A stretch of DNA of 64,000 bases from contig NZ_JAQQTF010000002.1 in the NCBI RefSeq assembly GCF_028561275.1, positions 248,001-312,000 on the forward strand, in the 5' to 3' direction. Source of the DNA: Aureisphaera galaxeae. Its GTDB lineage: Bacteria; Bacteroidota; Bacteroidia; Flavobacteriales; Flavobacteriaceae. Positions 7,747-23,232 of the stretch are shown here, one piece after another. The translations under genes and the position numbers were made by a program. The notes beneath the pieces were generated by a model. The model searched no databases. It saw nothing but the letters and a program-made list of their open reading frames with translations, and had not been told where the DNA came from. Within the stretch, counting starts at the first letter, position 1. Each line of letters opens with the position of its first letter.

Positions 7747-7760
7747 ATGGGATACGCTTT

Positions 7761-9074
7761 TTATAGGTTGAACCCTAAATTAACACCAATTTTATTGGCT
7801 ATCAGTTTGTTGATACGTCGCTTAAGCTCAGGAATCTTAACACCTTCCAATACATTGTTGGCAAAGGCATACATGAGCAAGGCTCTGGCCTCTTTCTTGG
7901 CGATTCCCCTCGAACGAAGATAGAAAAGGGCATCTTCATCCAGTTGCCCAATAGTACAACCGTGAGAGCACTTCACATCATCTGCAAAGATTTCCAACTG
8001 TGGTTTCGAATTTATCGTGGCCTTATCACTGATAAGAATGTTGTTGTTCTGCTGAAAAGCATCCAGTTTTTGGGCTTCTTTCTCTACGTATACCTTTCCG
8101 TTGAAAACCCCAGTGGAATTATCATCGAAAATCCCTTTGTAATCTTGGTGACTTTCGCAATTCGGAGCAATGTGATGCACCAATGTATTGTGATCTACAT
8201 GCTGTTTGCCTTCCAAAATGGTAATCCCATTCAGTACCGAATCGCAACGTTCCCCATGCTGATAGAAGTTGAGGTTGTTACGTATCAATTTTCCACCAAA
8301 GGAGAAGGTGTGTACCTTACAGATACTATCGCGCTCTTGCTTGATATGGGTATGATCGATAAGCGAAGCCGAAATGCGATCATTCTGGATTTTATAATAA
8401 TCTACAAACGCTCTTTTTTCAGCAAAAATCTCGGTCACCGAATTGGTAAACACGGCATTGTCTGAAAGACTTTGATGACGTTCTATGATCTGAACATGTG
8501 CATTTTCTTCAACCACCACCAAATTACGTGGTTGTAGAAGCATAGCAGCTTCATTCCCTGTAGCGAAGTTGATAATCTCGATAGGCTTTTCTACTTCCGT
8601 ATGCTTCGGAATGTAGATATAAGCCCCTTCCTTGGCAAAAGCTGTATTAAGGGAAGTTAAACTACTTTCTTGGGCAACTTTGTTGTAGTACGCTTCGATC
8701 ACAGGCTTGTACTTGTCCTTGCTTAAAGCAGAAGAAAGTAAGCACACATCCATGCCATCGTGCGTAGTTTCGGATAGGAAGGAACTGTAGACCCCATCTA
8801 CAAATACAATTTTGTAGGTGTCTACATCGTGAAGGAAATATTTCTTCACATCTTTTAGTTCCAACGTATTTTCCTTCTTAGGGAAAATGCTGTAATCCGG
8901 TTTCAGCAAAGTTTTTAATGAGGTGTATTTCCAAGCTTCTTGTTTTTTGGTAGGAAATCCTAGATCCTCAAAATTCTTTATAGCTTGTGTCCTAAGATCA
9001 TGAATAGGGGAGTCTACCTCCAAATGGTCTTCGAAAGCGAGATAGGACGATAATAATTTTTCTTTTAAGCTCAT
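7761..9074 (-). CDS. sufD: Fe-S cluster scaffold subunit SufD
   Basis: The 437-residue SufD subunit carries the SufBD beta-helix core with DALQQN-like DAFQQNNNILIS and the C-terminal block CSHGCTIGQLDEDALFYLRS, where the conserved Cys and His of the family lie. SufD pairs with SufB and SufC in the SufBC2D scaffold and is needed for iron acquisition during cluster assembly. The N-terminal KKQEAWKYTSLKTL motif is typical. It lies 18 bp after sufC and 14 bp before sufS, in one transcription unit. Confidence 0.96.
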   Translation of the reverse strand: MSLKEKLLSSYLAFEDHLEVDSPIHDLRTQAIKNFEDLGFPTKKQEAWKYTSLKTLLKPDYSIFPKKENTLELKDVKKYFLHDVDTYKIVFVDGVYSSFLSETTHDGMDVCLLSSALSKDKYKPVIEAYYNKVAQESSLTSLNTAFAKEGAYIYIPKHTEVEKPIEIINFATGNEAAMLLQPRNLVVVEENAHVQIIERHQSLSDNAVFTNSVTEIFAEKRAFVDYYKIQNDRISASLIDHTHIKQERDSICKVHTFSFGGKLIRNNLNFYQHGERCDSVLNGITILEGKQHVDHNTLVHHIAPNCESHQDYKGIFDDNSTGVFNGKVYVEKEAQKLDAFQQNNNILISDKATINSKPQLEIFADDVKCSHGCTIGQLDEDALFYLRSRGIAKKEARALLMYAFANNVLEGVKIPELKRRINKLIANKIGVNLGFNL

Positions 9075-9092
9075 CTTGGTTTTGGCTTGTCT

Positions 9093-9842
9093 TTACACCA
9101 ATTCTTCCTTAATCCAATCGTATCCTTTTTCCTCTAACTGGTATGCCAGTTCCTTGGGTCCGGATTTCACGATTTTTCCATCCATAAGTACATGTACAAA
9201 ATCAGGCACGATGTAGTCCAATAGACGTTGGTAGTGTGTAATAACGATCACTGCATTGTCATCGCTCTTTAACTTATTCACCCCATTGGCAACAATCTTA
9301 AGCGCATCGATATCCAATCCGGAATCGGTTTCGTCTAAGATCGCCAATTTAGGTTCCATCATAGCCATTTGGAAAATCTCATTTCGCTTTTTCTCACCTC
9401 CGGAGAACCCTTCGTTCAAGGAGCGGGAAAGGAACTTACGGTCAATTTCCAAAAGATCGGCTTTCTCTTTTATTTTCTTCAACATTTCGCCCGCTGGCAT
9501 ATCCTCTTGGCCTTTGGCCTTTCGGGTTTCGTTAATGGCGGTCTTAATGAAGTTGGTTACGGTTACCCCTGGAATTTCTACGGGATACTGAAAAGAAAGG
9601 AAAATACCTTTATGTGCTCTTTCCTCGGGATCCAATTCTGAAATGTCTTCTCCTTCCAGCATAACATCACCGTCGGTAATTTCGAATTCTTCTTTTCCTG
9701 CAACCACGGCAGCGAGCGTACTTTTCCCAGAACCGTTAGGTCCCATAATGGCATGTACTTCACCTGGATTTACCTCAAGGTCTATTCCCTTCAGGATATC
9801 TTTCTCTTCTACGCTTGCATGCAAGTTTTTTATGTGTAGCAT
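9093..9842 (-). CDS. sufC: Fe-S assembly ATPase SufC
   Basis: This 249-residue ABC-type ATPase has a Walker A GPNGSGKST (34-42), a signature FSGGEKKR (146-153) and a Walker B LAILDETDSGLD (167-178), exactly the SufC variants. It powers conformational change of the SufBC2D scaffold in the cytoplasm. There is no transmembrane partner, so it is not a transporter. The upstream lipoprotein gene ends one base before its ATG, so the two are translationally close. Confidence 0.98.
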   Translation of the reverse strand: MLHIKNLHASVEEKDILKGIDLEVNPGEVHAIMGPNGSGKSTLAAVVAGKEEFEITDGDVMLEGEDISELDPEERAHKGIFLSFQYPVEIPGVTVTNFIKTAINETRKAKGQEDMPAGEMLKKIKEKADLLEIDRKFLSRSLNEGFSGGEKKRNEIFQMAMMEPKLAILDETDSGLDIDALKIVANGVNKLKSDDNAVIVITHYQRLLDYIVPDFVHVLMDGKIVKSGPKELAYQLEEKGYDWIKEELV

Positions 9843-9843
9843 A

Positions 9844-10251
9844 TTAACTTTTCTTTTCTTCTATTTTTATATCTGCCTCCGCTGGTGCATCGCTAACAGT
9901 AACGATTTCTTTGATGGTAAGAACTTCGTCCCAACCTTCATCCCCGGCTGCTTTTTTATTCAAAATTCCTTTTACCACTACAGGAACCATGTCGAATTCT
10001 TCATTCTTAACAGGGGCTACTCTTTTCGCTAATTCCTCAGCCATTTCGTCCAAAGCCACTCCGTAAATGAAATTGTTTCCTTTTAACACGGCACCGTCGT
10101 CCAAATAGATAAACTCACCGCTATACATGCTGTATTCGTTTTCCAATAACTTTGGAGTTTCTTCTTGAGCAGCGGTTTTTTCTTCACCGTTCTTACAGGA
10201 AAATAGAACAGCAGCTAAAGCGAAAGTGAGTAGTAAAAGTGATCTTTTCAT
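9844..10251 (-). CDS. Small lipoprotein inserted between sufB and sufC
   Basis: The protein is 135 residues, starting at the ATG at 10249-10251, because only this start gives a lipoprotein signal (MKRSLLLLTFALAAVLFSC, cysteine 19). A longer frame reaching 10374 runs into the end of sufB and is rejected. The mature part is acidic, with an EFIYLDDGAVLKGNNFIYGV segment and a strand-rich VVVKGILNKK segment that could form a small OB-like beta domain. No family was recognised with certainty. The function is unknown. Its place inside the SUF operon, with gaps of 25 bp and 1 bp, implies co-expression with the Fe-S machinery. Confidence 0.85.
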   Translation of the reverse strand: MKRSLLLLTFALAAVLFSCKNGEEKTAAQEETPKLLENEYSMYSGEFIYLDDGAVLKGNNFIYGVALDEMAEELAKRVAPVKNEEFDMVPVVVKGILNKKAAGDEGWDEVLTIKEIVTVSDAPAEADIKIEEKKS

Positions 10252-10276
10252 TGTATTTGGTTGTTTTTTATGATGA

Positions 10277-11725
10277 TTATCCAACAGAGCCTTCAAGGCT
10301 AATTTCCAATAGTTTTTGAGCCTCCACTGCAAATTCCATAGGAAGCTTGTTAAGTACTTCTTTACTGAATCCATTTACGATAAGCGCAATGGCCTTTTCG
10401 GTATCGATTCCACGTTGGTTGCAGTAGAAAATTTGGTCTTCCCCAATCTTACTTGTCGTTGCTTCATGTTCTACCTGGGCCGTCTTGTTATTGGTTTCGA
10501 TGTATGGGAAGGTATGAGCCCCACACTTGTTCCCCATAAGCAGGGAATCACACTGTGAGAAGTTCCTGGCATTTTCTGCGCGGGGATGGATTTTTACCAA
10601 TCCACGATAACTGTTCTGTGATTTTCCGGCCGAAATTCCTTTCGAAATAATCGTACTTCGGGTATTCTTCCCTAAGTGGATCATTTTTGTTCCTGTATCG
10701 GCTTGCTGGAAGTTATTGGTCACTGCGATGGAGTAGAACTCCCCGATGGAGTTGTCGCCTTTAAGTACGCAACTTGGGTACTTCCAGGTAACTGCACTTC
10801 CTGTTTCCACCTGTGTCCAAGAAATTTTTGCGTTTTTCTCGCAAATTCCACGTTTGGTCACAAAGTTGAATACCCCACCATTTCCTTCTTTGTCCCCAGG
10901 GAACCAGTTCTGAACGGTAGAATATTTTATTTCCGCATCGTCTAGGGCGATCAATTCAACCACTGCAGCGTGTAACTGATTTTCATCACGCGAAGGAGCC
11001 GTGCAACCCTCTAGGTAGCTTACGTAACTTCCTTCGTCTGCAATAACCAGCGTACGCTCAAACTGTCCGGTACCGGCCTGGTTAATCCTGAAATAAGTGG
11101 AAAGCTCCATAGGGCAACGAACCCCTTTAGGAATGTAACAGAATGAACCATCGCTAAATACTGCACTATTTAGGGCAGCGTAGAAGTTATCTTTTTGAGG
11201 TACGACACTTCCAATGTATTTCTTTACCAATTCTGGGTGTTCCTGAATGGCTTCTGAAATGGAACAGAAAATGATCCCTTTCTCCGCCAAGGTATCTTTG
11301 AAGGTAGTGGCTACAGAAACCGAATCCATAACGATATCTACGGCAACACCGGCCAATTTCTTCTGCTCTTCTAAAGAAATACCCAGTTTGTTGAAGGTTT
11401 CCAGCAATTCTGGATCTACCTCGTCTATGCTATTGTATTTTGGCTTGGTTGAAGGTGCCGAGTAGTAGGAGATATTTTGAAAATTCGGTTTTTCATAGGT
11501 CACATTGGCCCATTCGGGTTCTTCCATTGCTTTCCAAATGCGGAAAGCTTCCAATCGCCATTCGGTCATCCATTCGGGCTCGTTCTTCTTTGCGGAAATA
11601 GCACGAACAATATCCTCGTCAAGACCTACCGGAAAAGTTTCCGATTCTATATCGGTATAGAAACCATACTCGTATTCTTTGGTCTCAAGTTCTTTTTTTA
11701 AATCGTCTTCAGTGAATTTTCCCAT
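10277..11725 (-). CDS. sufB: Fe-S cluster scaffold subunit SufB
   Basis: The 482-residue SufB has the family start [20 protein letters not shown] and the blocks [18 protein letters not shown] and [22 protein letters not shown]-terminal [14 protein letters not shown] block contains the cluster-related cysteine. It is the scaffold on which clusters are built with SufC and SufD. It follows sufA by 15 bp. Confidence 0.97.
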
Positions 11726-11740
11726 TTCTTGATCCCAGTT

Positions 11741-12070
11741 TTATAGTGAAAAGCTTTCTCCGCAACCGCAGGTACGGTTGGCATTTGGATTATTGAATAC
11801 AAATCCTTTTCCGTTAAGCCCACCGCTGTATTCCAGTGTGGTACCTACCAGATATAAAAAGCTCTTTTTGTCTACAATGATTTTGACAAAGTTGTCTTCA
11901 AATAGCTTATCGGTATCCCCTTGTGCATCGTCGAACTTGAGTTCGTAGGACAGGCCGGAACAACCACCACTCTTAACACCTACGCGCACAAAGTCCTTCT
12001 CAATACTGAATCCTTCTTCGGACATTAGCTGAGAAATCTTGTCTTTTGCACTTTCACTAACCTTTATCAT
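11741..12070 (-). CDS. sufA: HesB/IscA-family Fe-S carrier, first gene of the SUF operon
   Basis: This 109-residue A-type carrier has the three conserved cysteines: C37 in GVKSGGCSGLSYEL and C101/C103 in the C-terminal RTCGCGESF. It takes clusters from the SufBCD scaffold to target proteins. The symbol sufA is used because of its position at the head of the operon. By sequence alone it could equally be called IscA or ErpA-like. Confidence 0.94.
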   Translation of the reverse strand: MIKVSESAKDKISQLMSEEGFSIEKDFVRVGVKSGGCSGLSYELKFDDAQGDTDKLFEDNFVKIIVDKKSFLYLVGTTLEYSGGLNGKGFVFNNPNANRTCGCGESFSL

Positions 12071-12099
12071 CTATATAGAGTTATTCTAAATTAGGACTG

Positions 12100-12107
12100 C
12101 AAATATA
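12100..12107 (-). promoter_or_regulatory. -7 promoter element before the SUF operon
   Basis: On the minus strand this reads TATATTTG, an exact TAnnTTTG match 29 bases before the sufA ATG. No clear -33 box was found. No IscR-like palindrome was recognised. Confidence 0.42.
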
Positions 12108-12221
12108 CTGCAAATAGCATTTTAAACCATGTGCACGGCACATTAAAAGCTTATGCTACTATAGATTTATGTAATAATTAACAAGTAAGGTGTTGAGCGC
12201 CTGTTACTGGCCAATATTAGA

Positions 12222-13292
12222 CTATTGGCGAAAATCGGGATTGTTGATGAAACTCTCATCAGAAAGGGTGAGGAGAAATGCCTTAAGATCTGCCTTGTCG
12301 CTCTCGGTCATATGGGCACCTCCGGTGGATACATTCTTCATAAGGGGATCTATGGTTTCCGAGAATACCAGGCCTTCACTGTAGTGATTAATCACTTCCT
12401 CTATGGTAGCAAAACGTCCGTCATGCATAAAGGGGGCAGTGTACGCTAGATTACGTAAACTTGGGGATTTAAAATGGCCAAATTCACGCGGATCTCCAGA
12501 GAATCCACCAAGACCTAAGTCGGTAATGATTTCGTCCATCCCATTGTTGTGGAAGATATTATCGGTCCATAAGGGGTTGGCTGGTAAACCGTGACAGTGA
12601 AAACAATCGCCGCGTCCTTCATCCAAAAAAACATTAAGCCCGTTTTCCTCTTCCGGGGTCAACTCGGCTAGACCTAGTTGAAAACGATCGAATTTAGAGT
12701 TGGCCGAAACCAAGGTTCTCAAAAATTGGGCAATGGCTTTACTCACATTAACGGAGTCGATTCTGCTCGTGCCAAAAGCCTGTTCAAAAAGTTCAGGGTA
12801 TTCGGCATCGGCTTGTAAGGTGCTTTCGGCATTGGGCCAGGTATTGGCCATTTCATTGGGATCTACCACTGGATCGAAGATTTGTGCCTCCAAACCGAGG
12901 GCTCTACCATCCCAAAAGAATTTATTTTCAAAGTTCCATGCAATATTGAACAACGGCATAGAGTGTCGGGTGCCAGGATTGCCATTGATACCCAAACTAA
13001 ATTGTCTAGGATCGGAGAATGCATGCTCGGGGCGGTGGCAATCTGCACAGGCCTGTGTACCATTTCCAGAAAGAATGGGATCGAAGAAAAGTTTCTTGCC
13101 CAAGGCAATACCTTCTTCGGTTAAAGGATTGTCCTCTGGAATTACAGGCGGTAATAGTTTTCCCTGAAAAACTTCGGGTACCCCTAAAGTCACTGGAGTA
13201 GGGGTATATGTGGGCTCATCATCGGTGTCCTTGCAAGCATGCAAGGCAATGATCAACACACATACACCCAAATATTTCCAGTACTTATTCAT
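12222..13292 (-). CDS. Di-haem MbnH/CcpA-family cytochrome c peroxidase-like lipoprotein
   Basis: This 356-residue protein has a lipoprotein signal (MNKYWKYLGVCVLIIALHAC, cysteine 20). It has two haem c sites, C82-A-D-C-H86 and C230-F-H-C-H234, with a PFMHDGRF segment (287-294) typical of the CcpA/MauG superfamily. The gene starts 2 bp after the MbnP gene, which is the known MbnP-MbnH arrangement. In that pair the di-haem enzyme oxidises a tryptophan of MbnP to kynurenine and so creates a copper site. The pairing is seen here; the chemistry is inferred from the family. Classic H2O2 detoxification remains an alternative. Confidence 0.93.
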   Translation of the reverse strand: MNKYWKYLGVCVLIIALHACKDTDDEPTYTPTPVTLGVPEVFQGKLLPPVIPEDNPLTEEGIALGKKLFFDPILSGNGTQACADCHRPEHAFSDPRQFSLGINGNPGTRHSMPLFNIAWNFENKFFWDGRALGLEAQIFDPVVDPNEMANTWPNAESTLQADAEYPELFEQAFGTSRIDSVNVSKAIAQFLRTLVSANSKFDRFQLGLAELTPEEENGLNVFLDEGRGDCFHCHGLPANPLWTDNIFHNNGMDEIITDLGLGGFSGDPREFGHFKSPSLRNLAYTAPFMHDGRFATIEEVINHYSEGLVFSETIDPLMKNVSTGGAHMTESDKADLKAFLLTLSDESFINNPDFRQ

Positions 13293-13294
13293 GT

Positions 13295-14107
13295 TTAGTC
13301 TTCTGTAATAACGGTTCCTAGGCTGAAAACTCCAGCAGATCCATTCTCGTTCATATCCAATTGTGCCTCGTAGTTAGGCATCAAAACGGTGAACCAAGTG
13401 TTCAAATCCCAAGTGTTTGGGTTGGCGAACCATTCTGCTACGTCCATTTGAACTTCCACAGAAGTAGTACTACCCACGCTAACAGTTCCTAAGTTTACCG
13501 TAAAGGAAGTATCTGTTAGTTCGTCTAGAGTTCCTGGCCCTGGAGGCAAGGTATTGTGCCTGTTGGCTCTAATGGTGTGGTATTGGAAGTTCTCTGTGGC
13601 ACCAAGGCTATTTACATAGGTTCCTTCCATACGCATATAGTGGTATCCGCCACCCAATGGGTCTGGCACACCCCAACCACCGTCGGCAGTATTAAGGTCT
13701 TCATAACCACCAGCAGCATCATTGTCCTCGTCGTTAAATCCAAACGTGAAAGACACGGTGTAATCTCCTTTAGGAAGATCAAACCCTGGTGTAAAGTTGA
13801 TGTTACTTCCCGTACGGGCATTCACCAAATTATAGTCTCCAGCAGTATATGCTGTTCCGTCTGTGGCGGTAAAGGTAATATCCGAGATTAGGTATACCAA
13901 TTTGGAAAGCGTAAGGCTTTCTCCGTTCGCGTTGGTATAGGAAGTGGTTTCATAATCTGCATTTTCAATAGCCGTACCACCAAAGTTGTGCGTAAATGTA
14001 AAGTCTACAGTCACATTTGCTGGGGCAGACGAATCATCATCATTGTTACAGCTTACTAGGGCGATAGTAGCTACCAATAGCAAAGCAATTTTTTTCAATT
14101 TCATCAT
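13295..14107 (-). CDS. MbnP-family copper-binding lipoprotein
   Basis: The 270-residue lipoprotein (lipobox ending at C20) contains an MbnP domain from about residue 34 to 265. Typical parts are DFTFTHNFGG with H40, the LSKLVYLISDI strand, and GWGVPDPLGGGYHYMRMEG with W145 and H156, followed by YHTIRANRHNT with H177 and H184. MbnP proteins bind copper at the periplasm or cell surface. In studied members a tryptophan is converted to kynurenine by the di-haem partner, and W145 is the best candidate here by position. The di-haem gene is next, 2 bp away. Confidence 0.92.
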   Translation of the reverse strand: MMKLKKIALLLVATIALVSCNNDDDSSAPANVTVDFTFTHNFGGTAIENADYETTSYTNANGESLTLSKLVYLISDITFTATDGTAYTAGDYNLVNARTGSNINFTPGFDLPKGDYTVSFTFGFNDEDNDAAGGYEDLNTADGGWGVPDPLGGGYHYMRMEGTYVNSLGATENFQYHTIRANRHNTLPPGPGTLDELTDTSFTVNLGTVSVGSTTSVEVQMDVAEWFANPNTWDLNTWFTVLMPNYEAQLDMNENGSAGVFSLGTVITED

Positions 14108-14161
14108 TTCTTTTTTTTAGTATTTAAAGGGTTAAGGTTTATTTTATGGTAAGCTGTAGGC

Positions 14162-15583
14162 TTATTTGATTTTCGCAATCATTAAGTCTTTAATTCCTTT
14201 GTTTTGGGTAATATCTCCGTCGTTACTATCGGTTTCTCCCACTAGGATTAGTTTGTTGTCTGTAGTTTCGATAGCCCCATTACCGAAGTCAAGCTCAGAA
14301 CCACCCAAGTTCATTTCAAACTGAGGGACTCCACTTTCGTTAATGACCAAAATCCAAGCATCGTTTTGTCCGTTGTTTTCGGCAACGTCCCCATCAACAC
14401 TTCGTGAAGATCCGGCAATAACATACTTGCCACTGGACATAGGAGTAATACTTTGTGCAGAGTCGAATTGGGTTCCCCCGTAGGTGCGTTCCCAAATAAT
14501 AGATCCATTGGTGCTGGAGAATTTAACAGCCCATAGATCGGCATTTCCTTTAAGATTGGAAACATCTTGATCGGCACTTCGTGTGTCTCCCACAAAGATG
14601 AAATTACCATCGGTAGTTTCCGTCACACTAAATCCATTATCAATTTCAGAACCTCCAAAAGATTTTTCCCATTGGATGTCCCCTTGATCATTGATTTTAA
14701 TGGCCCAATAATCGTAGGATCCTTTAGGGTTTGTAATATCGAAATCATTACTCTCGGCAGCTCCAGTTAAGAGATAACCATTATCGGATGTTTGCAATAC
14801 ATCGTAACCACGATCGTTATTGGTGCCTCCAAAATAGCGACGCCATTCTTTGTTTCCGTTGGCATCCAATTTAATACCCCAGTATTCACCCAAACCGTGT
14901 CGGTTGTTACGGGAGTCTCCTTTGTCATCGGGAAGTAGGTCGTCTCCTTGTCCGCCACTACCGGCAAGGTCTAGGAACCCAACAGCAAAATAACCGCCAT
15001 CACTGGTCTGAACGACACTCAGGCCTTGTTCGCCTCCTAAAAATCCATGGTGGGTTTCCCATTGTAGGTTGCCACTACCATCAATTTTTACGATCCAAAT
15101 ATCCTGAAAGCCTTCATTCCCTCCTACGTCGCCATCGCTACTTCGGCTGTATCCAATAAGAATATAACCCCCGTCATCGGTTTTGCTTAGGGAATAACCT
15201 TCGTCGTCATTGCTTCCGCCGTAGGTTTTGCTCCAAACTTTTTCACCTTGAGGATTTACTTTTAGTACCCAAAAATCATTGCTGGGATCTGATTTATCTG
15301 TAATGTCCCCGTCCGTACTTTTGGTAGAACCGATGATGACATAGCTTCCATCATCTGCCTGTACCACGTCATTGGCCTCATCGATATCGCTACCTCCAAA
15401 GGTTTTTACGAAGTCGATTTCACCCAAGAATCCTGTAGGATCGGGATCTGGATCCGGGTCAGGGTCCGGATCTACTATGGTATCATCAGACGGAGCGTCG
15501 TCTCCACCGCAAGAGGTGAAGACGATACCCGCCATAACCATAAAGGTTAATAATAATATGAACTTTTTCTTTTTCAATAGCAT
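14162..15583 (-). CDS. Seven-repeat beta-propeller lipoprotein with Asp-Pro linker
   Basis: This 473-residue lipoprotein (MLLKKKKFILLLTFMVMAGI..., cysteine 25) has an acidic Asp-Pro dipeptide linker at about residues 38-49. Seven repeats of roughly 55-60 residues follow. Each begins with a FGGS.xD motif, carries a DGGYxxxG strand and ends in a D.W..KI...G...W strand, as expected for a seven-bladed propeller. Such proteins are often called delta-60 or WD-like repeat proteins, and no enzymatic motif is visible. It lies between the anchor-B gene (6 bp) and the MbnP gene (54 bp), so it is probably part of the same surface cluster. Confidence 0.88.
   Translation of the reverse strand: MLLKKKKFILLLTFMVMAGIVFTSCGGDDAPSDDTIVDPDPDPDPDPDPTGFLGEIDFVKTFGGSDIDEANDVVQADDGSYVIIGSTKSTDGDITDKSDPSNDFWVLKVNPQGEKVWSKTYGGSNDDEGYSLSKTDDGGYILIGYSRSSDGDVGGNEGFQDIWIVKIDGSGNLQWETHHGFLGGEQGLSVVQTSDGGYFAVGFLDLAGSGGQGDDLLPDDKGDSRNNRHGLGEYWGIKLDANGNKEWRRYFGGTNNDRGYDVLQTSDNGYLLTGAAESNDFDITNPKGSYDYWAIKINDQGDIQWEKSFGGSEIDNGFSVTETTDGNFIFVGDTRSADQDVSNLKGNADLWAVKFSSTNGSIIWERTYGGTQFDSAQSITPMSSGKYVIAGSSRSVDGDVAENNGQNDAWILVINESGVPQFEMNLGGSELDFGNGAIETTDNKLILVGETDSNDGDITQNKGIKDLMIAKIK
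15433..15474 (-). repeat. Asp-Pro dipeptide-encoding tandem repeat
   Basis: A GGATCC/GGGTCC-like hexamer is repeated imperfectly inside the lipoprotein gene and encodes the alternating Asp-Pro linker. It is length-variable DNA in principle. Confidence 0.6.
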
Positions 15584-15589
15584 AAAAAA

Positions 15590-16999
15590 TTATTTTACCA
15601 CCAATCGCTTGGTCGTAGTGTTATTTATCGTAACGAGGTACATTCCAGTGTTTAAGCTTGTAATGTTGATTGTTTCCGATAAACGTGAAGCGTAGGTATT
15701 GTCCAACACTTTTTGTCCAAGGACATTAAAGATTTCTACACGAGCAATTCCTTCTTCCGTAGAAGAAACGGTCAATCTGTCCGTTGCTGGATTCGGGAAA
15801 AGTGAGAATTTAGTTTGCTCAAAGTCCTCGGTAGAAAGAGACCCAGACGCTTTCACAAGTGTCATACCTGCATCTCCGGTAATTACAATATTTTCACTGG
15901 CAAAAAATGGATATACGTTCCAAGAACCAGAGTAGTTGGCACTGTTGTTAGAAGGATATGTATCGAAGTATCCATCTAGGGTAATATTTCCATTTTCAAT
16001 ATCACTAATATCCAAAACACGTAGTCCAGCAGCATAGTTAGATAGGTAGAACTTATCACCAACCACATATCCATTGTGGTCTACAGCTGCAGTATCGCCC
16101 TCGTAGGCAAAATCGTATAGTGGGTTATCTAGGTCGCTTAGATCGAAAACCACAGTACGCGTATTGAATCCGAAGTCGAACTCATCTCCTTCGTCTCCCA
16201 ATAGGAAGTATCTCTGGTCTTCAGTAAACCATCCTTGGTGGGTGTACCCTACATTAGGATAGTCGGTGCTTCCCAATTGTACGGGATTAGACTTATCTGT
16301 AATATCAACAATAACAAGTTCATCGGCATTACTACCAATGAAAATCTCTTTTCCTGCATGCTCAGTATCAGGTCCGTTGTAGGTTACGATTTGAGCATCG
16401 TGTGTGTATCCGTCGGTGGCATAACCTCCTTCGAAAACAGGGTTTGTAGGATCTTGGATGTTAATGAAAATAGGTCCTCCACTAAAAAGACTGGAACCAA
16501 TAGGATAGGCATATCCGGTATCTTCATTAATCGCAATATTGTGCGCGCTTCCGAAACTGTTGTCGTGCGCATCATTTGTAAAGGTAGTTGGAGGGCTGGC
16601 AACATTTCTAAGACGAGTAAGGTCGAATACTTGCATTCCGTGTCCGCCAGCTTCACTTACAATAAAAGCGTGGTTGTCGTATACCTTAACATCTCTCCAG
16701 ATGCTACTGTCTGTATGCGTTGGAAGTTTTCCTAGGTACACAGGATTTACAGGATCGGAAACATCAATAAATGCCGTTCCATTGGTTAGCCCAACAATGG
16801 CATATTCTTTTCCGTCTTGAGGGTCGGTCCATCCCCAAGAGTCGTTTGCTCCAGAGGCTCCCATAGTCCCGTTAGAAATTCTTGATTGTAGATCGTATCC
16901 AGAGCAGGGGAAGGTATCGGCTGTACCACCCGTACATGGGCTCTGTGCGAAGGTGATGCCGGTAGCCAAAAGTAGGATAGCCGTAGTAATTTTTTTCAT
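15590..16999 (-). CDS. Choice-of-anchor B family protein, T9SS cargo (copy 1)
   Basis: The 469-residue protein has a signal peptide (MKKITTAILLLATGITFAQ), a choice-of-anchor B / LVIVD-like propeller (about 20-385) and a T9SS type A sorting domain at the end (FSLFPNPATDRLTV to the basic tail). Signatures are NDSWGWTDPQDGKEYA, SEAGGHGMQVFDLTRLR, THQGWFTEDQRYF and DHNGYVVGD. It is exported to the outer surface via the outer membrane. The biochemical role is unknown. It is the closest of the three T9SS copies to the MbnP/MbnH genes. Confidence 0.93.
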   Translation of the reverse strand: MKKITTAILLLATGITFAQSPCTGGTADTFPCSGYDLQSRISNGTMGASGANDSWGWTDPQDGKEYAIVGLTNGTAFIDVSDPVNPVYLGKLPTHTDSSIWRDVKVYDNHAFIVSEAGGHGMQVFDLTRLRNVASPPTTFTNDAHDNSFGSAHNIAINEDTGYAYPIGSSLFSGGPIFINIQDPTNPVFEGGYATDGYTHDAQIVTYNGPDTEHAGKEIFIGSNADELVIVDITDKSNPVQLGSTDYPNVGYTHQGWFTEDQRYFLLGDEGDEFDFGFNTRTVVFDLSDLDNPLYDFAYEGDTAAVDHNGYVVGDKFYLSNYAAGLRVLDISDIENGNITLDGYFDTYPSNNSANYSGSWNVYPFFASENIVITGDAGMTLVKASGSLSTEDFEQTKFSLFPNPATDRLTVSSTEEGIARVEIFNVLGQKVLDNTYASRLSETINITSLNTGMYLVTINNTTTKRLVVK

Positions 17000-17045
17000 C
17001 GAAGTTTTAATTAGGGTTCTTAATAACTGTTTTAAAAGGTTATAA

Positions 17046-17076
17046 CTAAACCATAACGAAATATGTTATGGTTTAG
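17046..17076. repeat. Perfect inverted repeat between anchor-B genes
   Basis: A 12-bp perfect inverted repeat (CTAAACCATAAC at 17046-17057, GTTATGGTTTAG at 17065-17076) with a 7-base loop lies in the 118-bp gap. No long T-run follows on either strand. It may therefore be an mRNA hairpin or an operator rather than a terminator. Confidence 0.7.
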
Positions 17077-17117
17077 TCTATAAACCTGAAAATTTTGCCA
17101 AATTTACAACAAAACGC

Positions 17118-19049
17118 TTATTTCTTTACGATTCTTTTAGTTATAAGGTTGTTAATATTTATAAAATAAATTCCTTCCGCAAGGGATGAAATGCTAATGT
17201 TTTGTCTTTGTACATCCATGTTACTCATATCGATCAACTGCTTCCCAGTAACATCAAAAATTGCGATGTTGTTAATGTTCTGATTTTCAGAAACTACTGT
17301 AATTTGATCGCTGGATGGATTTGGGAAAATGGATAATCCTTGTTCCAATAGCGATTCAGAAACTCCTAGAGGTTCGTCTACAGTTAAAACGAAAGAACAG
17401 GTGTTCGTATTTCCTTCATCATCTGTAGTTTCAAAAGAAATTGTATGTGTTCCTACAGCCATCTCGGTTCCGGACACCGGGTCTTGGGTAATAGCTAACG
17501 TAGAAGTACAGTTATCGGCTGCTGCCACATCTCCATTCAACACATAGTCCGGTAACGTATAGGTGCTGGTTGCCTCATCGGCTACCACGGTTTCATCTAG
17601 GTGGCAGTCCGTGAATGACGGTGCCATGGTATCTTCTATTGTAATGGTAGCAGTACATGTATCTGTATTTCCTGAAGGATCCGTTACTGTAACTGTTACC
17701 ACATGATCTCCTAGGTCGCTACAATCGAAGCTGTTTTCACTTAGGGTTACGGTATAGGAACCACTGTCATCGCTAGAGCCTCCGTCTACATCACTTCCTG
17801 CAACAATTACGTCTCCGTTACTTCCCAATTGCGCTGTGAAGTCTTGACAAACCGCTACAGGATCTGTGTTGTCTACACCGGCAGCTTTTACCAAGAAAAA
17901 TCCACGGTTAATATCACTAATTACGATGTTTCCACTTCCGAAGTAAGGATAAACGCTCCATGCTCCGTCGAAACTAGCACTGTTGCTTGGTGGATAAGTG
18001 TCGAAGAAACCTTCTTCGGTCATGCTACCACTAGCAATATTGGAAAGATCGATTACACGAAGTCCAGCTCGGTAATTTGCCATATAATATTTGTTGCCTT
18101 TTACATAACCATTGTGGTCAATTGCTGCAGTAGGTCCCGTATAGTCGAAATGGTGTTGAGGGTTGTCTAAGTCTTCGAAATCGAAAACAATGGTTCGAGT
18201 ATTGAATCCAAAATTCAATTCGTCGGTTTCGTCTCCCAAGATGAAATATCTCTGATCTTCAGTGAACCACCCTTGGTGCGTATACCCCACATTGCCATAG
18301 GAAATGGAAGAAATGTTTTGTGGATTGGACTTATCGGTAATGTCTACAATCACTACTTCATTTTCGTTACTTCCAATAAGAATTTCCCTTCCTGTATAAT
18401 CTGAATCTGGACCATTGTAGGTAACCACCTGTGCATCGTGACTATAGTCATCCATTCCGTATCCACCTTCCCCAACTGGGTTCTGAGGGTCTTGGATATT
18501 GATGAAGACAGGACCTCCGTTGAATAGGCTGGACCCAACAGGATAAGCATATCCTGTATCTTCGTTGATTACAATGTTGTGGGCATCGCCAAAACCATTG
18601 TAGTGAGCATCTTCGGAGAAGGTTACCGGTGGGTTGGTTACATTTCTCAATCGAGTTAGATCGAATACCTGCATTCCGTGTCCACCAGCTTCACTTACAA
18701 CAAAAGCATGGTTGTTGTATGTTTTAACATCTCTCCAAGAACTACTCGTGGTATGAGTAGGTAACTTTCCAAGATAAACAGGGTTTACGGGGTCGGATAC
18801 ATCAATAAAAGCCGTTCCGTTGTTCAGGGCAATGATGGCATATTCTTTTCCGTCCAAGTCATCGGTCCATCCCCAGGAATCATTTCCGGAGCCGGCATTA
18901 AGCCCACTAAGGTTTATGTGTGATTGCAGATCGTACCCATTACATGGATACGCTCCTGCAGATCCTCCGGTACATGGGGTCTGAGCTACGGCACATTGAA
19001 TAGAAACCGCTGCAAATAGAAAAAGTAGGTTTTTCATAAGTAAGTTCAA
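17118..19049 (-). CDS. Choice-of-anchor B family protein with two HYR-like domains, T9SS cargo (copy 2)
   Basis: The 643-residue paralogue has a signal peptide ending near CAVAQ. Its propeller (about 22-390) is the same as in copy 1. It then carries two extra HYR/Ig-like domains at about 395-560, recognisable from DNTDPVAVCQDFTAQLG, TVTVTDPSGNTDTC and FETTDDEGNTNTCSF, and finally a T9SS type A domain (LSIFPNPSSDQITV). The extra domains make it about 170 residues longer than its neighbours. HYR domains are usually adhesion-type spacers, so this copy may reach further from the cell. The gap to the upstream copy is 22 bp. Confidence 0.93.
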   Translation of the reverse strand: MNLLMKNLLFLFAAVSIQCAVAQTPCTGGSAGAYPCNGYDLQSHINLSGLNAGSGNDSWGWTDDLDGKEYAIIALNNGTAFIDVSDPVNPVYLGKLPTHTTSSSWRDVKTYNNHAFVVSEAGGHGMQVFDLTRLRNVTNPPVTFSEDAHYNGFGDAHNIVINEDTGYAYPVGSSLFNGGPVFINIQDPQNPVGEGGYGMDDYSHDAQVVTYNGPDSDYTGREILIGSNENEVVIVDITDKSNPQNISSISYGNVGYTHQGWFTEDQRYFILGDETDELNFGFNTRTIVFDFEDLDNPQHHFDYTGPTAAIDHNGYVKGNKYYMANYRAGLRVIDLSNIASGSMTEEGFFDTYPPSNSASFDGAWSVYPYFGSGNIVISDINRGFFLVKAAGVDNTDPVAVCQDFTAQLGSNGDVIVAGSDVDGGSSDDSGSYTVTLSENSFDCSDLGDHVVTVTVTDPSGNTDTCTATITIEDTMAPSFTDCHLDETVVADEATSTYTLPDYVLNGDVAAADNCTSTLAITQDPVSGTEMAVGTHTISFETTDDEGNTNTCSFVLTVDEPLGVSESLLEQGLSIFPNPSSDQITVVSENQNINNIAIFDVTGKQLIDMSNMDVQRQNISISSLAEGIYFININNLITKRIVKK

Positions 19050-19071
19050 TTAGGGTTTGGTGAATTTAAGT

Positions 19072-20508
19072 TTATTGTTTTACGATTTTTTTTGTTGTCT
19101 TGTTGTTCACTTTTACATAGTAAATACCGGCCGAAAGTGATGAAATATCAACAGTTTCAGACGTATTTCCAGAGGCATTCCTTACAATTAATTGTTGTCC
19201 AAGGACATTGTGTACAGCAATCGAATTAATCGGGGCATTTGCTGTACGGATGTTAATTGCGTTTTGCGCTGGGTTAGGGCTCAGGGTAAGTTGGCTCGCT
19301 AGGCTGAAATCTTCAGTACCTAAAGAAGATTCACGTAAGATATACATCCCTCCCGTATAACTGGTATCTGAAAAGAACAGCGAAGAAACCAAGATGTTTC
19401 CACTGTTGAAATAAGGATATACATTCCAGGCACCATCATATCCAGCACCATCGCCACTGGTATAAATGTCGAAGTATCCAACTTCGGAAGCATTTCCATT
19501 TTCAATATCCGAAATATCCACTACGCGAAGTCCAGCTTCGTAATTTGCTAAGTAGAAAAGATCTCCGTTTACGTAACCGTTATGATCGGTTGCCGAAGTT
19601 GGCCCTGTGTAATCAAAATGATGTACGGGATTGTCCAAATCGGTAAAATCGAAAACCAAAGTTCTCGTGTTGAATCCGAAGTTCAATTCGTCGATCTCAT
19701 CACCTAAAATAAAATAGGCATGATCGTCCGTTAGCCATCCCTGGTGGGTGTATGCAACATTGGTGTATCCTATGGTTGAAATGGTCATTGGGTTCGCTTT
19801 GTCCGTAATATCTGCAATGACAATCTCGGTAGTATTACTTCCAATATAAATCTCGCGTCCCGTGTAATCCGTATCAGGGCCGTTGTAGGTTACAACCTGT
19901 CCATCGTGGCTATAGCCACCATCACTGTATCCTCCTACACCCACTGGATTTAGAGGGTCAGAAATATCTACGAAATGAGGTCCACCTCCGAAGGTTGTGG
20001 TTCCAACCCCATAAGCATAGGCTTCACTTTCATTGATTACCAAATTATGAGCGTTACCAAATCCGCTGTAATGCGCATCTGCCGTAAAGGTCTCTGGGGG
20101 AGAAGCAACGGATCTCAATTTGGTAAGATCGAACACCTGCATTCCATGTCCACTAGCCTCACTTACCACAAAAGCATAGTTGTCATATACTTTCACATCC
20201 CTCCATAAACTGGGGGCAGTATGTGTGGGTAATTTTCCAAGGTATAGTGGATTTACAGGATCTGAAATATCCACAAAAGCAACACCATTGTCTACACCGA
20301 CAAGTGCATATTCCTTTCCGTCTTGTGGATCGGTCCATCCCCAAGAATCATTTGCATTGGTAGCACCAAAAGTGGTCCATGGGATAAAGGACATTAGATC
20401 ATATCCATTACAAGGATAGGAACCCGCCATTCCTCCAATACATTCAGTTTGGGCCGTAACGGAGTAGGAAATAAATAGTAAGCCAAGGGATAGTAAAATT
20501 CTTCTCAT
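19072..20508 (-). CDS. Choice-of-anchor B family protein, T9SS cargo (copy 3)
   Basis: The 478-residue paralogue has a signal peptide (MRRILLSLGLLFISYSVTAQ), the propeller with NDSWGWTDPQDGKEYALVG, EASGHGMQVFDLTKLR, THQGWLTDDHAYF and DHNGYVNGD, and a T9SS type A domain (LTLSPNPAQNAINI). It is clearly homologous to copies 1 and 2 over the whole propeller. An exact -7 box upstream (20535-20542) suggests it may start a transcript running down into copies 2 and 1. Confidence 0.93.
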   Translation of the reverse strand: MRRILLSLGLLFISYSVTAQTECIGGMAGSYPCNGYDLMSFIPWTTFGATNANDSWGWTDPQDGKEYALVGVDNGVAFVDISDPVNPLYLGKLPTHTAPSLWRDVKVYDNYAFVVSEASGHGMQVFDLTKLRSVASPPETFTADAHYSGFGNAHNLVINESEAYAYGVGTTTFGGGPHFVDISDPLNPVGVGGYSDGGYSHDGQVVTYNGPDTDYTGREIYIGSNTTEIVIADITDKANPMTISTIGYTNVAYTHQGWLTDDHAYFILGDEIDELNFGFNTRTLVFDFTDLDNPVHHFDYTGPTSATDHNGYVNGDLFYLANYEAGLRVVDISDIENGNASEVGYFDIYTSGDGAGYDGAWNVYPYFNSGNILVSSLFFSDTSYTGGMYILRESSLGTEDFSLASQLTLSPNPAQNAINIRTANAPINSIAVHNVLGQQLIVRNASGNTSETVDISSLSAGIYYVKVNNKTTKKIVKQ

Positions 20509-20534
20509 TTCTAAGCAATTTTTTAAAATGCGAC

Positions 20535-20542
20535 CAAATCTA
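20535..20542 (-). promoter_or_regulatory. -7 promoter element before anchor-B copy 3
   Basis: On the minus strand this reads TAGATTTG, an exact TAnnTTTG match, 26 bases before the ATG at 20508. A TTG-like sequence lies 15 bases further upstream, which is short of the usual spacing. Confidence 0.4.
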
Positions 20543-20749
20543 ACAAATTATACCGAGCAAAAGCGTTAAATACCTATATATATGGCCTATTTATGAGATT
20601 TTTAGGAGTCTCATATGGTGCTATTCAGGGTAAGCTTTCGTCAGGAACTGTGCTTTCGCGGCTACTTGGTCTTCATAATGAAAACTACAAGACACATAAA
20701 TATGAGAAAAAATGTCGCAAAACTATGAGATGGATCATGGTTTCAAAAA

Positions 20750-22009
20750 CTAATTTTTTCTAACAATAAAGAGTCCTTTTTCGATATCGCTTATGGCAAT
20801 ATTTCCACTGTTGAAAAAGGGGTAGACATTCCAAACACCGTCGAAACTTGTTCCGTTGTTTAATGGGTATGTATCGAAGTAGCCAATTTCGAAAATGTCC
20901 TGACTGCCAATATCCGAGATGTCCATCACACGCATGCCACCCGCATAATTTGCCTGGTAAAACAGATTTCCTTTCACATATCCGTTGTGATCTATGGATG
21001 AGGTTTGTCCGAAATAATTAAAATGGAATTGTGGGTTGTCCAGATCGAACAAATCCCAAACAATGGTGCGGGCATTAAAGCCGAACTCGATCTCATCGAA
21101 TTCATCCCCCAATAAAAAATAACGTTGGTCTTGTGTAAACCATCCTTGGTGTGTAAAACCTGTTTGCAGATAGGTAACTGAAGCGATATTTTGTGGATTG
21201 GCCTTGTCTGTAACATCTACAATGACAAAGCGATTTTCGTTGCTGCCAAAGAAAATTTCTTTTCCCGTATGATCGGTGTCGGGTCCTTGATAGGTAATGA
21301 CCTGTGCATCGTGGCTATAGTTGTCCAAACCATAGCCGCCCTCATCAATGGGATTTAATGGGTCTTGAATGTTTATGAAATAAGGGCCGCCACTGAAGGA
21401 ATCCGAACCGAGGACATAGGCATATCCCACATCTTCGTTTATGGCAATGTTATGGGCACCCCCGAAATTGGTGAAATGGGCGTCCATTTCGAAAGAGGCG
21501 GGAGGGTTGGTGATGTCCCGTAAACGAGTAAGATCAAACACCTGCATTCCATGGTTTTCACCTTCGCTAACAATAAACGCATAATTGTTGTATACCTTTA
21601 TATCCCTCCAAGGACTGCTAAAGGAGGCAGACGGAAGTTTCCCTAAGTATACCGGATTTTCCGAATCTGAAATATCGATAAACGCCGTTCCGTTAGAAAG
21701 CCCCAACAACACATATTCCTTCGCGGTCATGGGATCTGTCCAACCCCAGGAATCGTTGGCACTCCCAGCATTGAAAAAAGAAAGGGGGATATGACTTATG
21801 AGATCGAATCCGTTACAATCGAAATAACCCGCTTTTCCATTTACACATGGGGTGAACGAAAGTTGGGCGCTGGGATCATAGGTGACGGTTTCTTCGGTGT
21901 CATTTCCATTTCCATTGGTATTCGTGTTAGAAGATTCACGGGAATCGTCATCACTGGAGCAGGACATCGACAATGCAAAAACCAAAAGCAAACCTGTTAT
22001 CTTTTTCAT
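20750..22009 (-). CDS. Choice-of-anchor B family lipoprotein (copy 4)
   Basis: The 419-residue paralogue starts at the ATG at 22007-22009. An in-frame ATG 18 bases upstream would put six extra residues before the lipoprotein signal. The signal (MKKITGLLLVFALSMSC, cysteine 17) makes it a lipoprotein, and there is no T9SS domain at the C-terminus, which stops after the propeller at GLFIVRKN. A polar Asn/Gly/Asp linker (SSDDDSRESSNTNTNGNGND) leads to the propeller with NDSWGWTDPMTAKEYVLLG and THQGWFTQDQRYF. It is thus a membrane-tethered version of the family. It is 241 bp upstream of copy 3. Confidence 0.92.
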   Translation of the reverse strand: MKKITGLLLVFALSMSCSSDDDSRESSNTNTNGNGNDTEETVTYDPSAQLSFTPCVNGKAGYFDCNGFDLISHIPLSFFNAGSANDSWGWTDPMTAKEYVLLGLSNGTAFIDISDSENPVYLGKLPSASFSSPWRDIKVYNNYAFIVSEGENHGMQVFDLTRLRDITNPPASFEMDAHFTNFGGAHNIAINEDVGYAYVLGSDSFSGGPYFINIQDPLNPIDEGGYGLDNYSHDAQVITYQGPDTDHTGKEIFFGSNENRFVIVDVTDKANPQNIASVTYLQTGFTHQGWFTQDQRYFLLGDEFDEIEFGFNARTIVWDLFDLDNPQFHFNYFGQTSSIDHNGYVKGNLFYQANYAGGMRVMDISDIGSQDIFEIGYFDTYPLNNGTSFDGVWNVYPFFNSGNIAISDIEKGLFIVRKN

Positions 22010-22153
22010 ACTTCCTAAAGTAGCCATTTTGAAACTTCAATTTTCTTACAAAGTAGTTAAACTGTTGTTTTTTAGGTCTGTATTTATAAAATAAGACTTT
22101 GAGACCGAAGAAATTATTTTTGAAACCGGCTTACCTCCTTAGTATTTAAGCTG

Positions 22154-22179: not shown

Positions 22180-23232
22180 ATGCTAGAAGATAAAAATAAG
22201 GCGCGCACCCCTATTTCAGAATTGGGAGAATTTGGACTCATAGACCACCTTACCCAGAACATAGAAATTAAACATACTTCTACCGTTAAAGGCATTGGTG
22301 ATGATGCTGCGGTAATTGCCCCTGAGAAGGGAATGCAACAAGTAGTTACCACCGATTTATTGGTAGAAGGGGTGCATTTCGATTTGGGATATATGCCCCT
22401 TAAGCATTTAGGATACAAATCGGTGATGGTAAATCTGAGCGATGTGTATGCGATGAATGCCACCGCCAAACAGATCACGGTTTCCCTAGCAGTTTCCAAT
22501 CGATTTCCTGTAGAAGCTTTGGAAGAATTGTATGACGGTATTAAGACTGCTGCCCGTATTTATGATGTAGATGTTATTGGTGGGGACACGACTTCTTCTA
22601 CCGCTGGATTGGTGATTAGCATAACCGCTATCGGAGAAGCGGCCAAAGACAAAATCGTATATCGTAATGGAGCTCAAGAAAATGACCTTTTAGTGGTTAC
22701 AGGGGACCTAGGAGCGGCTTATTTGGGGCTACAAGTATTGGAACGTGAAAAGCAGGTGTTCCAAACCAATCCCAATGCACAACCCGAATTGGATAGCTAC
22801 ACCTATTTGGTAGAACGCCAGCTAAAGCCGGAAGCCAGAAAAGATATTCCTAAGTTATTGGAGGATTTGGAAGTGGTTCCTACGGCCATGATCGACATAA
22901 GCGATGGTCTCTCCAGTGAAATCATTCATATATGTAAGCAATCTAAAGTAGGTTGCAATTTGTACGAAGATAAAATTCCTTTAGATCCTCAAGTGATTTC
23001 TACCTGCGAGGAATTTCAGTTAGACAGTACTACCATAGCTCTGAGTGGAGGGGAGGATTATGAATTGTTGTTCACCGTTAAAATGGAGGACTTTCCAAAA
23101 ATTAAGGCCAACCCCAACCTAACGGTCATTGGACACATAACCCAAGAAAAAGAAGGGATGCACCTCATTACACGAGCCGATACCAAAATTCCTTTGGTAG
23201 CCCGTGGATGGAATGCCTTAAAAGAGGAATAA
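22180..23232 (+). CDS. thiL: Thiamine-monophosphate kinase
   Basis: The 350-residue enzyme phosphorylates thiamine monophosphate to the active diphosphate cofactor in the cytoplasm. Family motifs are GIGDDAAVI (38-46), a VDVIGGDTTSS block near 130, an IDISDGLSSEI block near 228 and SGGEDYELLF near 290. These form the ATP- and metal-binding site of the PurM-like fold. The length fits the family. No other thiamine gene is nearby, and the two small genes downstream point the other way. Confidence 0.97.
   Translation: MLEDKNKARTPISELGEFGLIDHLTQNIEIKHTSTVKGIGDDAAVIAPEKGMQQVVTTDLLVEGVHFDLGYMPLKHLGYKSVMVNLSDVYAMNATAKQITVSLAVSNRFPVEALEELYDGIKTAARIYDVDVIGGDTTSSTAGLVISITAIGEAAKDKIVYRNGAQENDLLVVTGDLGAAYLGLQVLEREKQVFQTNPNAQPELDSYTYLVERQLKPEARKDIPKLLEDLEVVPTAMIDISDGLSSEIIHICKQSKVGCNLYEDKIPLDPQVISTCEEFQLDSTTIALSGGEDYELLFTVKMEDFPKIKANPNLTVIGHITQEKEGMHLITRADTKIPLVARGWNALKEE

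What the first reader, a model, noticed from the sequence alone, without database searches (positions are those of the whole stretch)
12222..22009. Seven-gene surface copper/haem cluster with four anchor-B paralogues
On one strand lie, in transcription order, four choice-of-anchor B paralogues, a seven-repeat propeller lipoprotein, an MbnP copper-binding lipoprotein and its di-haem MbnH/CcpA partner. Gaps are 241, 22, 118, 6, 54 and 2 bp. Three anchor-B proteins are T9SS cargo and one is a lipoprotein, so the module seems to place members both outside and on the membrane. MbnP/MbnH pairs are known for copper-site maturation; a link to anchor-B proteins as displayed partners is my inference and would be new if confirmed.
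Basis: partly seen in the sequence, partly recalled or inferred. Interest (0 to 1): 0.78.

Follow-up and report, generated by a model that had tools for sequence, protein, structure and literature searches.

The report
Conserved surface copper-propeller operon beside suf
A row of genes found together in dozens of marine bacterial genera pairs unstudied, ring-shaped surface proteins (which look as if they hold a metal) with a known two-protein kit that builds copper-binding sites, so these mystery proteins can now be tested as part of a cell-surface copper system.

Summary
In 151 genomes (one per genus), 49 of 80 MbnP hits have AB 1.4-2.5 kb upstream on the same strand (about 0.04 expected by chance). 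PROP orthologues sit directly behind AB in 72 of 72. In 80 named GTDB loci the order AB(n)-PROP-MbnP-MbnH never varies. Intergenic medians of 6-10 nt imply one operon.

New points: the block occupies one site between thiL and the suf Fe-S operon, which keeps its own promoter. The lipoproteins carry surface-export-like signals. The linked MbnP is a variant that mostly lacks the WxW kynurenine motif and has two invariant His. AB folds (AF2, pLDDT 95) as a seven-bladed propeller with one invariant His at the channel mouth of four consecutive blades; closest PDB fold is the metal-dependent phosphotriesterase Sb-PTE.

Limits: no linkage excess outside Flavobacteriaceae, so shared descent at one locus is a live rival. 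Copper function and an AB-MbnP interaction remain inference.

The parts
20750..22009 (-). AB1: choice-of-anchor B, lipoprotein form (lipobox MSC, then SSDDD export-signal-like motif); an earlier in-frame ATG lies at 22027
   Evidence: TIGR04312 540.9 bits; no T9SS tail; sequence
19072..20508 (-). AB2: choice-of-anchor B with T9SS type A tail
   Evidence: TIGR04312 539 bits, TIGR04183 50 bits
17118..19049 (-). AB3: choice-of-anchor B + HYR domain + T9SS tail; TTG-started ORF, likely start at the ATG four codons in
   Evidence: TIGR04312 584.4 bits, HYR 2e-9; domain model pLDDT 94.8
15590..16999 (-). AB4: choice-of-anchor B with T9SS tail
   Evidence: TIGR04312 536.3 bits
14162..15583 (-). PROP: seven-repeat propeller lipoprotein, constant partner of AB
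   Evidence: no Pfam hit; orthologues directly behind AB in 72/72 genomes
13295..14107 (-). MbnP, AB-linked variant: lipoprotein CNNDDD; no WxW motif (WGV); H156, H177, M243 invariant in the subfamily
   Evidence: PF20243 9e-31; fold match 7l6g MbnP E 1.5e-6
12222..13292 (-). MbnH-like di-haem (MauG/bCcP superfamily) lipoprotein; CxxCH at residues 82-86 and 230-234, inter-haem-type Trp127
   Evidence: CCP_MauG 1e-55; TIGR04039 230.9 bits, below cut-off; 6e1c E 3e-52
12071..12221 (-). MbnH-sufA intergenic stretch with a conserved sufA promoter (TATATTTGCA...ATTTAGA); separates the module from suf
   Evidence: TAnnTTTG upstream of sufA in 131/147 loci vs 16 expected after shuffling
6529..12070 (-). 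suf operon sufA-sufB-lipoprotein-sufC-sufD-sufS, conserved downstream neighbour (context, not part of the module)
22180..23232 (+). thiL-like gene, conserved divergent upstream neighbour (context)
   Evidence: synteny; name assigned from the sequence, not by a family search

Best explanation
The seven genes are an expanded copy of a conserved Flavobacteriaceae operon, AB(1-6)-PROP-MbnP-MbnH, inserted between thiL and the suf Fe-S operon. It most likely encodes a surface-facing copper module. The products are exported by T9SS or as surface lipoproteins. The di-haem MbnH oxidises a tryptophan of the variant MbnP to make or tune a Cu(I) site (two His plus modified Trp, as in MopE/CorA). MbnP then works together with the AB propellers, whose four-His channel site is the likely metal-using or metal-storing end; PROP serves as scaffold. 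Shown: the conserved operon, order, location and folds, the invariant His set and the export-type signals. Inferred: copper as the metal, tryptophan oxidation in this variant, and contact between MbnP and AB.
For: Linkage: 49/80 MbnP hits have AB upstream on the same strand; 47 of 47 fetched loci and 80/80 named loci keep the order, with AB missing only where two contigs end. PROP directly behind AB 72/72 (71 by script plus one overlapping by 4 nt), MbnP directly behind PROP 49/72. Intergenic medians 8.5, 10 and 6 nt. AB model pLDDT 94.8, seven blades; H135, H182, H236, H290 of the modelled domain invariant in 56 sequences and in 20/20 phylum-wide members, including those under 300 bits; best fold match is the metal propeller Sb-PTE 5hrm. 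MbnP fold matches 7l6g only. Export-signal-like acidic N-termini: MbnP 120/125, PROP 98/120, MbnH 101/124, lipid-anchored AB 64/78, against 41/114 for the suf-internal lipoprotein (signal defined in PMC5080379). Precedent: CorA, a surface copper(I) protein with 2 His + kynurenine, co-transcribed with a di-haem partner (PMC3912023).
Against: No expression, metal or interaction data. MbnP/MbnH are dispensable to the AB-PROP pair (absent from 23 of 72). AB also occurs alone and across the phylum without MbnP nearby, so AB has a function that does not need MbnP. The variant MbnP mostly lacks WxW (9 of 44 loci keep it) and 5 of 44 lack the first Trp, so kynurenine formation is doubtful in part of the family. 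Sb-PTE-type enzymes use other metals. Coordinates of the model were not available, so His-His distances are unmeasured.
Confidence: 0.42

Rival explanations
1. Positional hitch-hiking: two unrelated pairs (AB-PROP and MbnP-MbnH) ended up at the thiL-suf site in an ancestor of Flavobacteriaceae and have been inherited together without working together.
For: One location in nearly all genomes. Linked MbnH need not come from more than one recruitment (AU p 0.60 for a single clade). No excess linkage outside the family. suf and thiL are equally conserved neighbours.
Against: Very short internal gaps with an invariant order, against a 158-nt gap and a separate promoter before suf; loss appears to act on the whole module or the whole MbnP-MbnH pair; no variant MbnP was found away from AB-PROP among 44 loci plus 80 named loci.
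Confidence: 0.28
2. AB is a secreted metal-dependent hydrolase (phosphotriesterase or lactonase-like propeller), and MbnP/MbnH do a parallel copper job on the surface; the operon is a co-regulated stress or nutrient set rather than a pathway.
For: Best PDB fold match 5hrm/Sb-PTE (E 5.8e-13), the only non-tail sequence-level hit, at E 0.05; channel-mouth His, Asp, Arg and Lys invariant or nearly so.
Against: The sequence similarity is only a repeat-level match; Sb-PTE metal ligands could not be aligned here; propeller folds are common (over 1,100 PDB matches at E <= 0.001).
Confidence: 0.18
3. AB is itself a substrate of MbnH: the di-haem enzyme oxidises the AB WGW tryptophans next to the four-His site.
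For: AB has WGW in all 56 aligned members; the Trp oxidised in MbnP lies in a WxW motif (my knowledge of the MbnP literature); MbnH and AB are predicted to meet outside the cell.
Against: The WGW motif is equally present in AB of genomes without MbnH at the locus (L082-L090) and in most members of other classes, so its conservation does not depend on MbnH.
Confidence: 0.06

Closest known systems
MbnP/MbnH pair (PF20243, TIGR04039/TIGR04052; 'metallo-mystery pair'; MbnP structure 7l6g)
   Same: Same gene order MbnP then MbnH, MbnP fold, di-haem MauG-type partner, partner pair outside methanobactin operons (described in PMC3621798).
   Different: Embedded behind AB-PROP; the MbnP variant lacks WxW in most members and has extra invariant H156, M243 and W233; MbnH is below the TIGR04039 cut-off.
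CorA/CorB and MopE/SACCP of methanotrophs
   Same: Works like: a surface copper(I) protein with two His and a kynurenine, co-transcribed with a di-haem partner (PMC3912023; MopE PMC3423442).
Choice-of-anchor B (TIGR04312) / LVIVD-repeat proteins
   Same: All four AB proteins are full members.
   Different: The family was known only as a domain with varied anchors; here it has a fixed operon partner, a predicted seven-bladed fold and an invariant four-His set.
Sb-PTE, phosphotriesterase of Sphingobium sp. TCM1 (5hrm)
   Same: Seven-bladed propeller fold; best Foldseek match to AB.
   Different: About 15% identity, TM-score 0.68-0.70; ligand residues not shown to correspond; AB is exported and operon-linked to MbnP.

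Membership tests
Choice-of-anchor B (TIGR04312) | Full-length domain above the 100-bit cut-off | tested here: met
   536-584 bits, 363-364 of 364 positions, four proteins
T9SS cargo | C-terminal type A sorting domain | tested here: met
   AB2, AB3, AB4: TIGR04183 45-52 bits; AB1 none
MbnP (PF20243) | Profile score above the gathering score and MbnP fold | tested here: met
   107.7 vs 27 bits; 7l6g E 1.5e-6
MbnP (PF20243) | WxW motif whose first Trp becomes kynurenine | tested here: not met
   Window has WGV; 9 of 44 linked-variant loci keep WxW, against 28 of 28 classical. So this is a divergent MbnP, not a canonical one.
MbnP (PF20243) | Binds Cu(I) | not testable with these tools
   needs protein
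MbnH equivalog (TIGR04039) | Score above the 362.85-bit cut-off | tested here: not met
   230.9 bits; none of the 151 Flavobacteriaceae genomes reaches the cut-off
MauG/bCcP di-haem superfamily (PF03150) | Domain plus two CxxCH haem sites | tested here: met
   188.8 bits; CxxCH conserved at 82-86 and 230-234
MauG/bCcP di-haem superfamily (PF03150) | Tryptophan-modifying activity | not testable with these tools
   needs enzyme assay
Sb-PTE-like metal propeller | Fold | tested here: met
   Foldseek E 5.8e-13, rank 1
Sb-PTE-like metal propeller | Same metal ligands | tested here: inconclusive
   Sequence alignment only repeat-level, E 0.05; coordinates not available
Surface-exposed Bacteroidota lipoproteins (export signal) | Polar residue then acidic residues at +2 to +6 after the lipid Cys | tested here: met
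   Window: AB1 SSDDD, MbnP NNDDD, MbnH KDTDDE, PROP GGDDA; family counts
Methanobactin operon | mbnA/mbnB/mbnC nearby | tested here: inconclusive
   The recurrent neighbours are thiL and suf and the named window genes include no methanobactin biosynthesis gene, but no specific mbnA/B/C search was run

The most novel reading that the evidence does not exclude
Choice-of-anchor B proteins are a phylum-wide class of exported metalloproteins with a four-His site at the mouth of a seven-bladed propeller channel, and in Flavobacteriaceae this site is metallated or matured with copper by the surface MbnP/MbnH pair encoded in the same operon.
Probability: 0.22. Interest if true: 0.82.

Novelty: new variant of a known kind. 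Interest (0 to 1): 0.62.

Why it matters
It turns a large exported family with no assigned function into a testable metalloprotein hypothesis (four-His propeller). It shows that MbnP/MbnH occurs as part of a conserved surface operon outside methanobactin producers, with an MbnP variant whose kynurenine chemistry is in question. It also places a likely copper module next to the Fe-S assembly operon, and Fe-S clusters are a known target of copper toxicity (established knowledge, not tested here). The genetics are ready: one locus, many culturable genera (Winogradskyella, Tenacibaculum, Ulvibacter, Altibacter, Bizionia), and natural variants with and without the MbnP/MbnH pair.

Tried and rejected
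Independent recruitment of a second MbnP/MbnH lineage to the AB-PROP site (four classical pairs, L035-L038): looked like strong proof of a functional link, but the AU test does not reject a single linked clade (p 0.60), so it is not claimed. One transcription unit with suf: rejected as the default because sufA keeps its own conserved promoter motif and a 158-nt gap. Generality across Bacteroidota: AB and MbnP both occur widely, but linkage outside Flavobacteriaceae is about what chance gives (order and phylum samples; judged by reading the listed coordinates, not every match was listed). PDB search of MbnP by sequence found nothing; fold search was needed. PROP in viral contigs: none. Consensus sigma-70 and full Bacteroidota promoter scans of the window gave no more than chance. 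The main MbnP/MbnH papers are not in the open library, so whether they already mention LVIVD/AB neighbours could not be checked.
Full report
OBSERVATION. Seven ORFs on the minus strand at 12222-22027 match the description exactly, including all six gaps. Profile searches give four full-length choice-of-anchor B (AB) proteins, three of them with T9SS type A tails and one lipoprotein; a lipoprotein without a Pfam hit whose sequence shows seven D-x-W/G-rich repeats (PROP); MbnP (PF20243, 107.7 bits); and a di-haem CCP_MauG protein that hits TIGR04039 below its equivalog cut-off. The best solved relative of the last is the di-haem enzyme 6e1c.

IS THE LINKAGE REAL? Over 151 Flavobacteriaceae genomes, each of a different genus, MbnP was found in 72 and AB (over cut-off) in 77. 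Of 80 MbnP hits, 49 have AB within 20 kb; all 49 are on the same strand with AB upstream at 1.4-2.5 kb, against about 0.04 expected at random. In 47 fetched loci the order is always AB(n)-PROP-MbnP-MbnH. A scan of GTDB contigs with the linked MbnP variant found 468 relatives; the best 80, from Winogradskyella, Tenacibaculum, Ulvibacter, Altibacter, Marinirhabdus, Bizionia, Tamlana and others, all have PROP-MbnP-MbnH in that order, and AB in all but two whose contigs end first. PROP orthologues lie directly behind AB in 72 of 72 genomes (71 by the script, the last overlapping AB by 4 nt), with MbnP directly behind in 49. Median gaps are 8.5, 10 and 6 nt, as in an operon.

WHERE IT SITS. All-against-all clustering of the flanks showed that the whole neighbourhood is conserved: a divergent thiL-like gene on one side and sufA-B-C-D-S on the other. 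With SufB located in 147 genomes, 20 genomes without AB were fetched: most have thiL and sufA side by side, and most of the nine genomes with AB but no linked MbnP have AB-PROP at the suf site, the clear exception being G136. The module is therefore gained or lost as a block at one site, and MbnP-MbnH is its optional half. sufA keeps its own promoter: a TAnnTTTG element lies within 160 nt upstream in 131 of 147 loci against 16 expected after shuffling, including loci without the module; MbnH-sufA gaps have a median of 158 nt. The module is thus a separate transcription unit with possible read-through into suf. Conserved location also means that vertical descent inflates raw counts; the four classical MbnP/MbnH pairs found at the same site do not prove a second recruitment (AU p 0.60).

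TWO MbnP KINDS. Classical MbnPs (28 loci) all have WxW; the AB-linked variant (44 loci) keeps it in 9, and the window has WGV. The first Trp is Phe in 5 of 44. The Met that precedes the classical WxW is missing. The variant has invariant H156, H177, M243 and W233. Profile comparison (E 2e-32) and fold search (only 7l6g significant) show that it is still an MbnP. Two invariant His plus a nearby Trp recall the 2 His + kynurenine copper site of CorA and MopE (PMC3912023, PMC3423442), but that is analogy.

WHAT AB IS. The AF2 model of the AB3 domain (56 sequences, pLDDT 94.8, pTM 0.93) has seven four-stranded blades. Invariant or nearly invariant residues stand at the start of the innermost strand of successive blades: W37/W39, R84/D85/K87, H135, H182/D183, H236, D289/H290, W342/Y345. 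The four His are kept in 20 of 20 members sampled across the phylum, including those under 300 bits. Foldseek ranks Sb-PTE (5hrm) first; the title of its structure paper describes a binuclear metal centre in a seven-bladed propeller (reference list of PMC11656708). A metal or active site at the channel mouth is the natural reading; the metal is not known.

LOCATION OF THE PRODUCTS. Bacteroidota surface lipoproteins carry a polar residue followed by acidic residues just after the lipid Cys (PMC5080379). In the window: AB1 CSSDDD, PROP CGGDDA, MbnP CNNDDD, MbnH CKDTDDE. Across the loci two or more acidic residues at +2 to +7 occur in 98/120 PROP, 120/125 MbnP, 101/124 MbnH and 64/78 lipid-anchored AB, against 41/114 for the lipoprotein between sufB and sufC; an unselected set of nearby lipoproteins gave 70/114, so the signal is suggestive rather than proof. 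With the T9SS tails of the other AB proteins, the whole module probably faces outward.

MECHANISM. Most likely a surface copper module: MbnH modifies MbnP, MbnP holds copper, AB uses or stores metal at its four-His site, PROP scaffolds. The first step is established for classical pairs (my knowledge of the MbnP literature; the papers are not in the held library) but doubtful for variants without WxW. Rivals are hitch-hiking at the suf site and AB as an independent metal hydrolase.

SCOPE. In the phylum sample (248 genomes) and the order sample (198) AB and MbnP are both common but rarely close outside Flavobacteriaceae, and the few close pairs differ in arrangement. The claim is for Flavobacteriaceae only.

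VERDICT. A real, tightly conserved operon, not an accident of one genome. The window is an expanded case (four AB; 76 of 127 clusters have one). No paper found in the open library names choice-of-anchor B, so the module appears undescribed there; prior mention in closed papers cannot be excluded.

Noticed in passing
window 12071-12221; L175-L194 and others upstream of sufA: A strongly conserved element upstream of sufA, of the form GTATATTTGCA-N4-6-ATTTAGA-N3-5-AATCTA, present with and without the AB module; possibly promoter plus an operator for a Fe-S or Rrf2-type regulator.
   Followed up: partly
window 9844-10374: A small lipoprotein (no Pfam hit) is encoded between sufB and sufC in most Flavobacteriaceae suf operons examined (116 loci in the clustering).
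   Followed up: partly
G000: C5, C11, C12:1018966, C14, C16 (loci L001, L091-L094): The window's genome has ten choice-of-anchor B genes in all; the ones outside the cluster that were fetched stand without PROP.
   Followed up: partly
L035-L038: Four genomes carry a classical (WxW) MbnP/MbnH pair at the AB-PROP-suf site instead of the variant pair.
   Followed up: yes
G136:C1:897102-899570 vs sufB at 999783 (locus L086): One genome has AB-PROP about 100 kb away from suf, the only clear relocation seen.
   Followed up: no
G429:C15 and G470:C12 (another family of the order): AB and MbnP lie about 3 kb apart in divergent orientation in two related genomes; may be chance or a separate association.
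   Followed up: no
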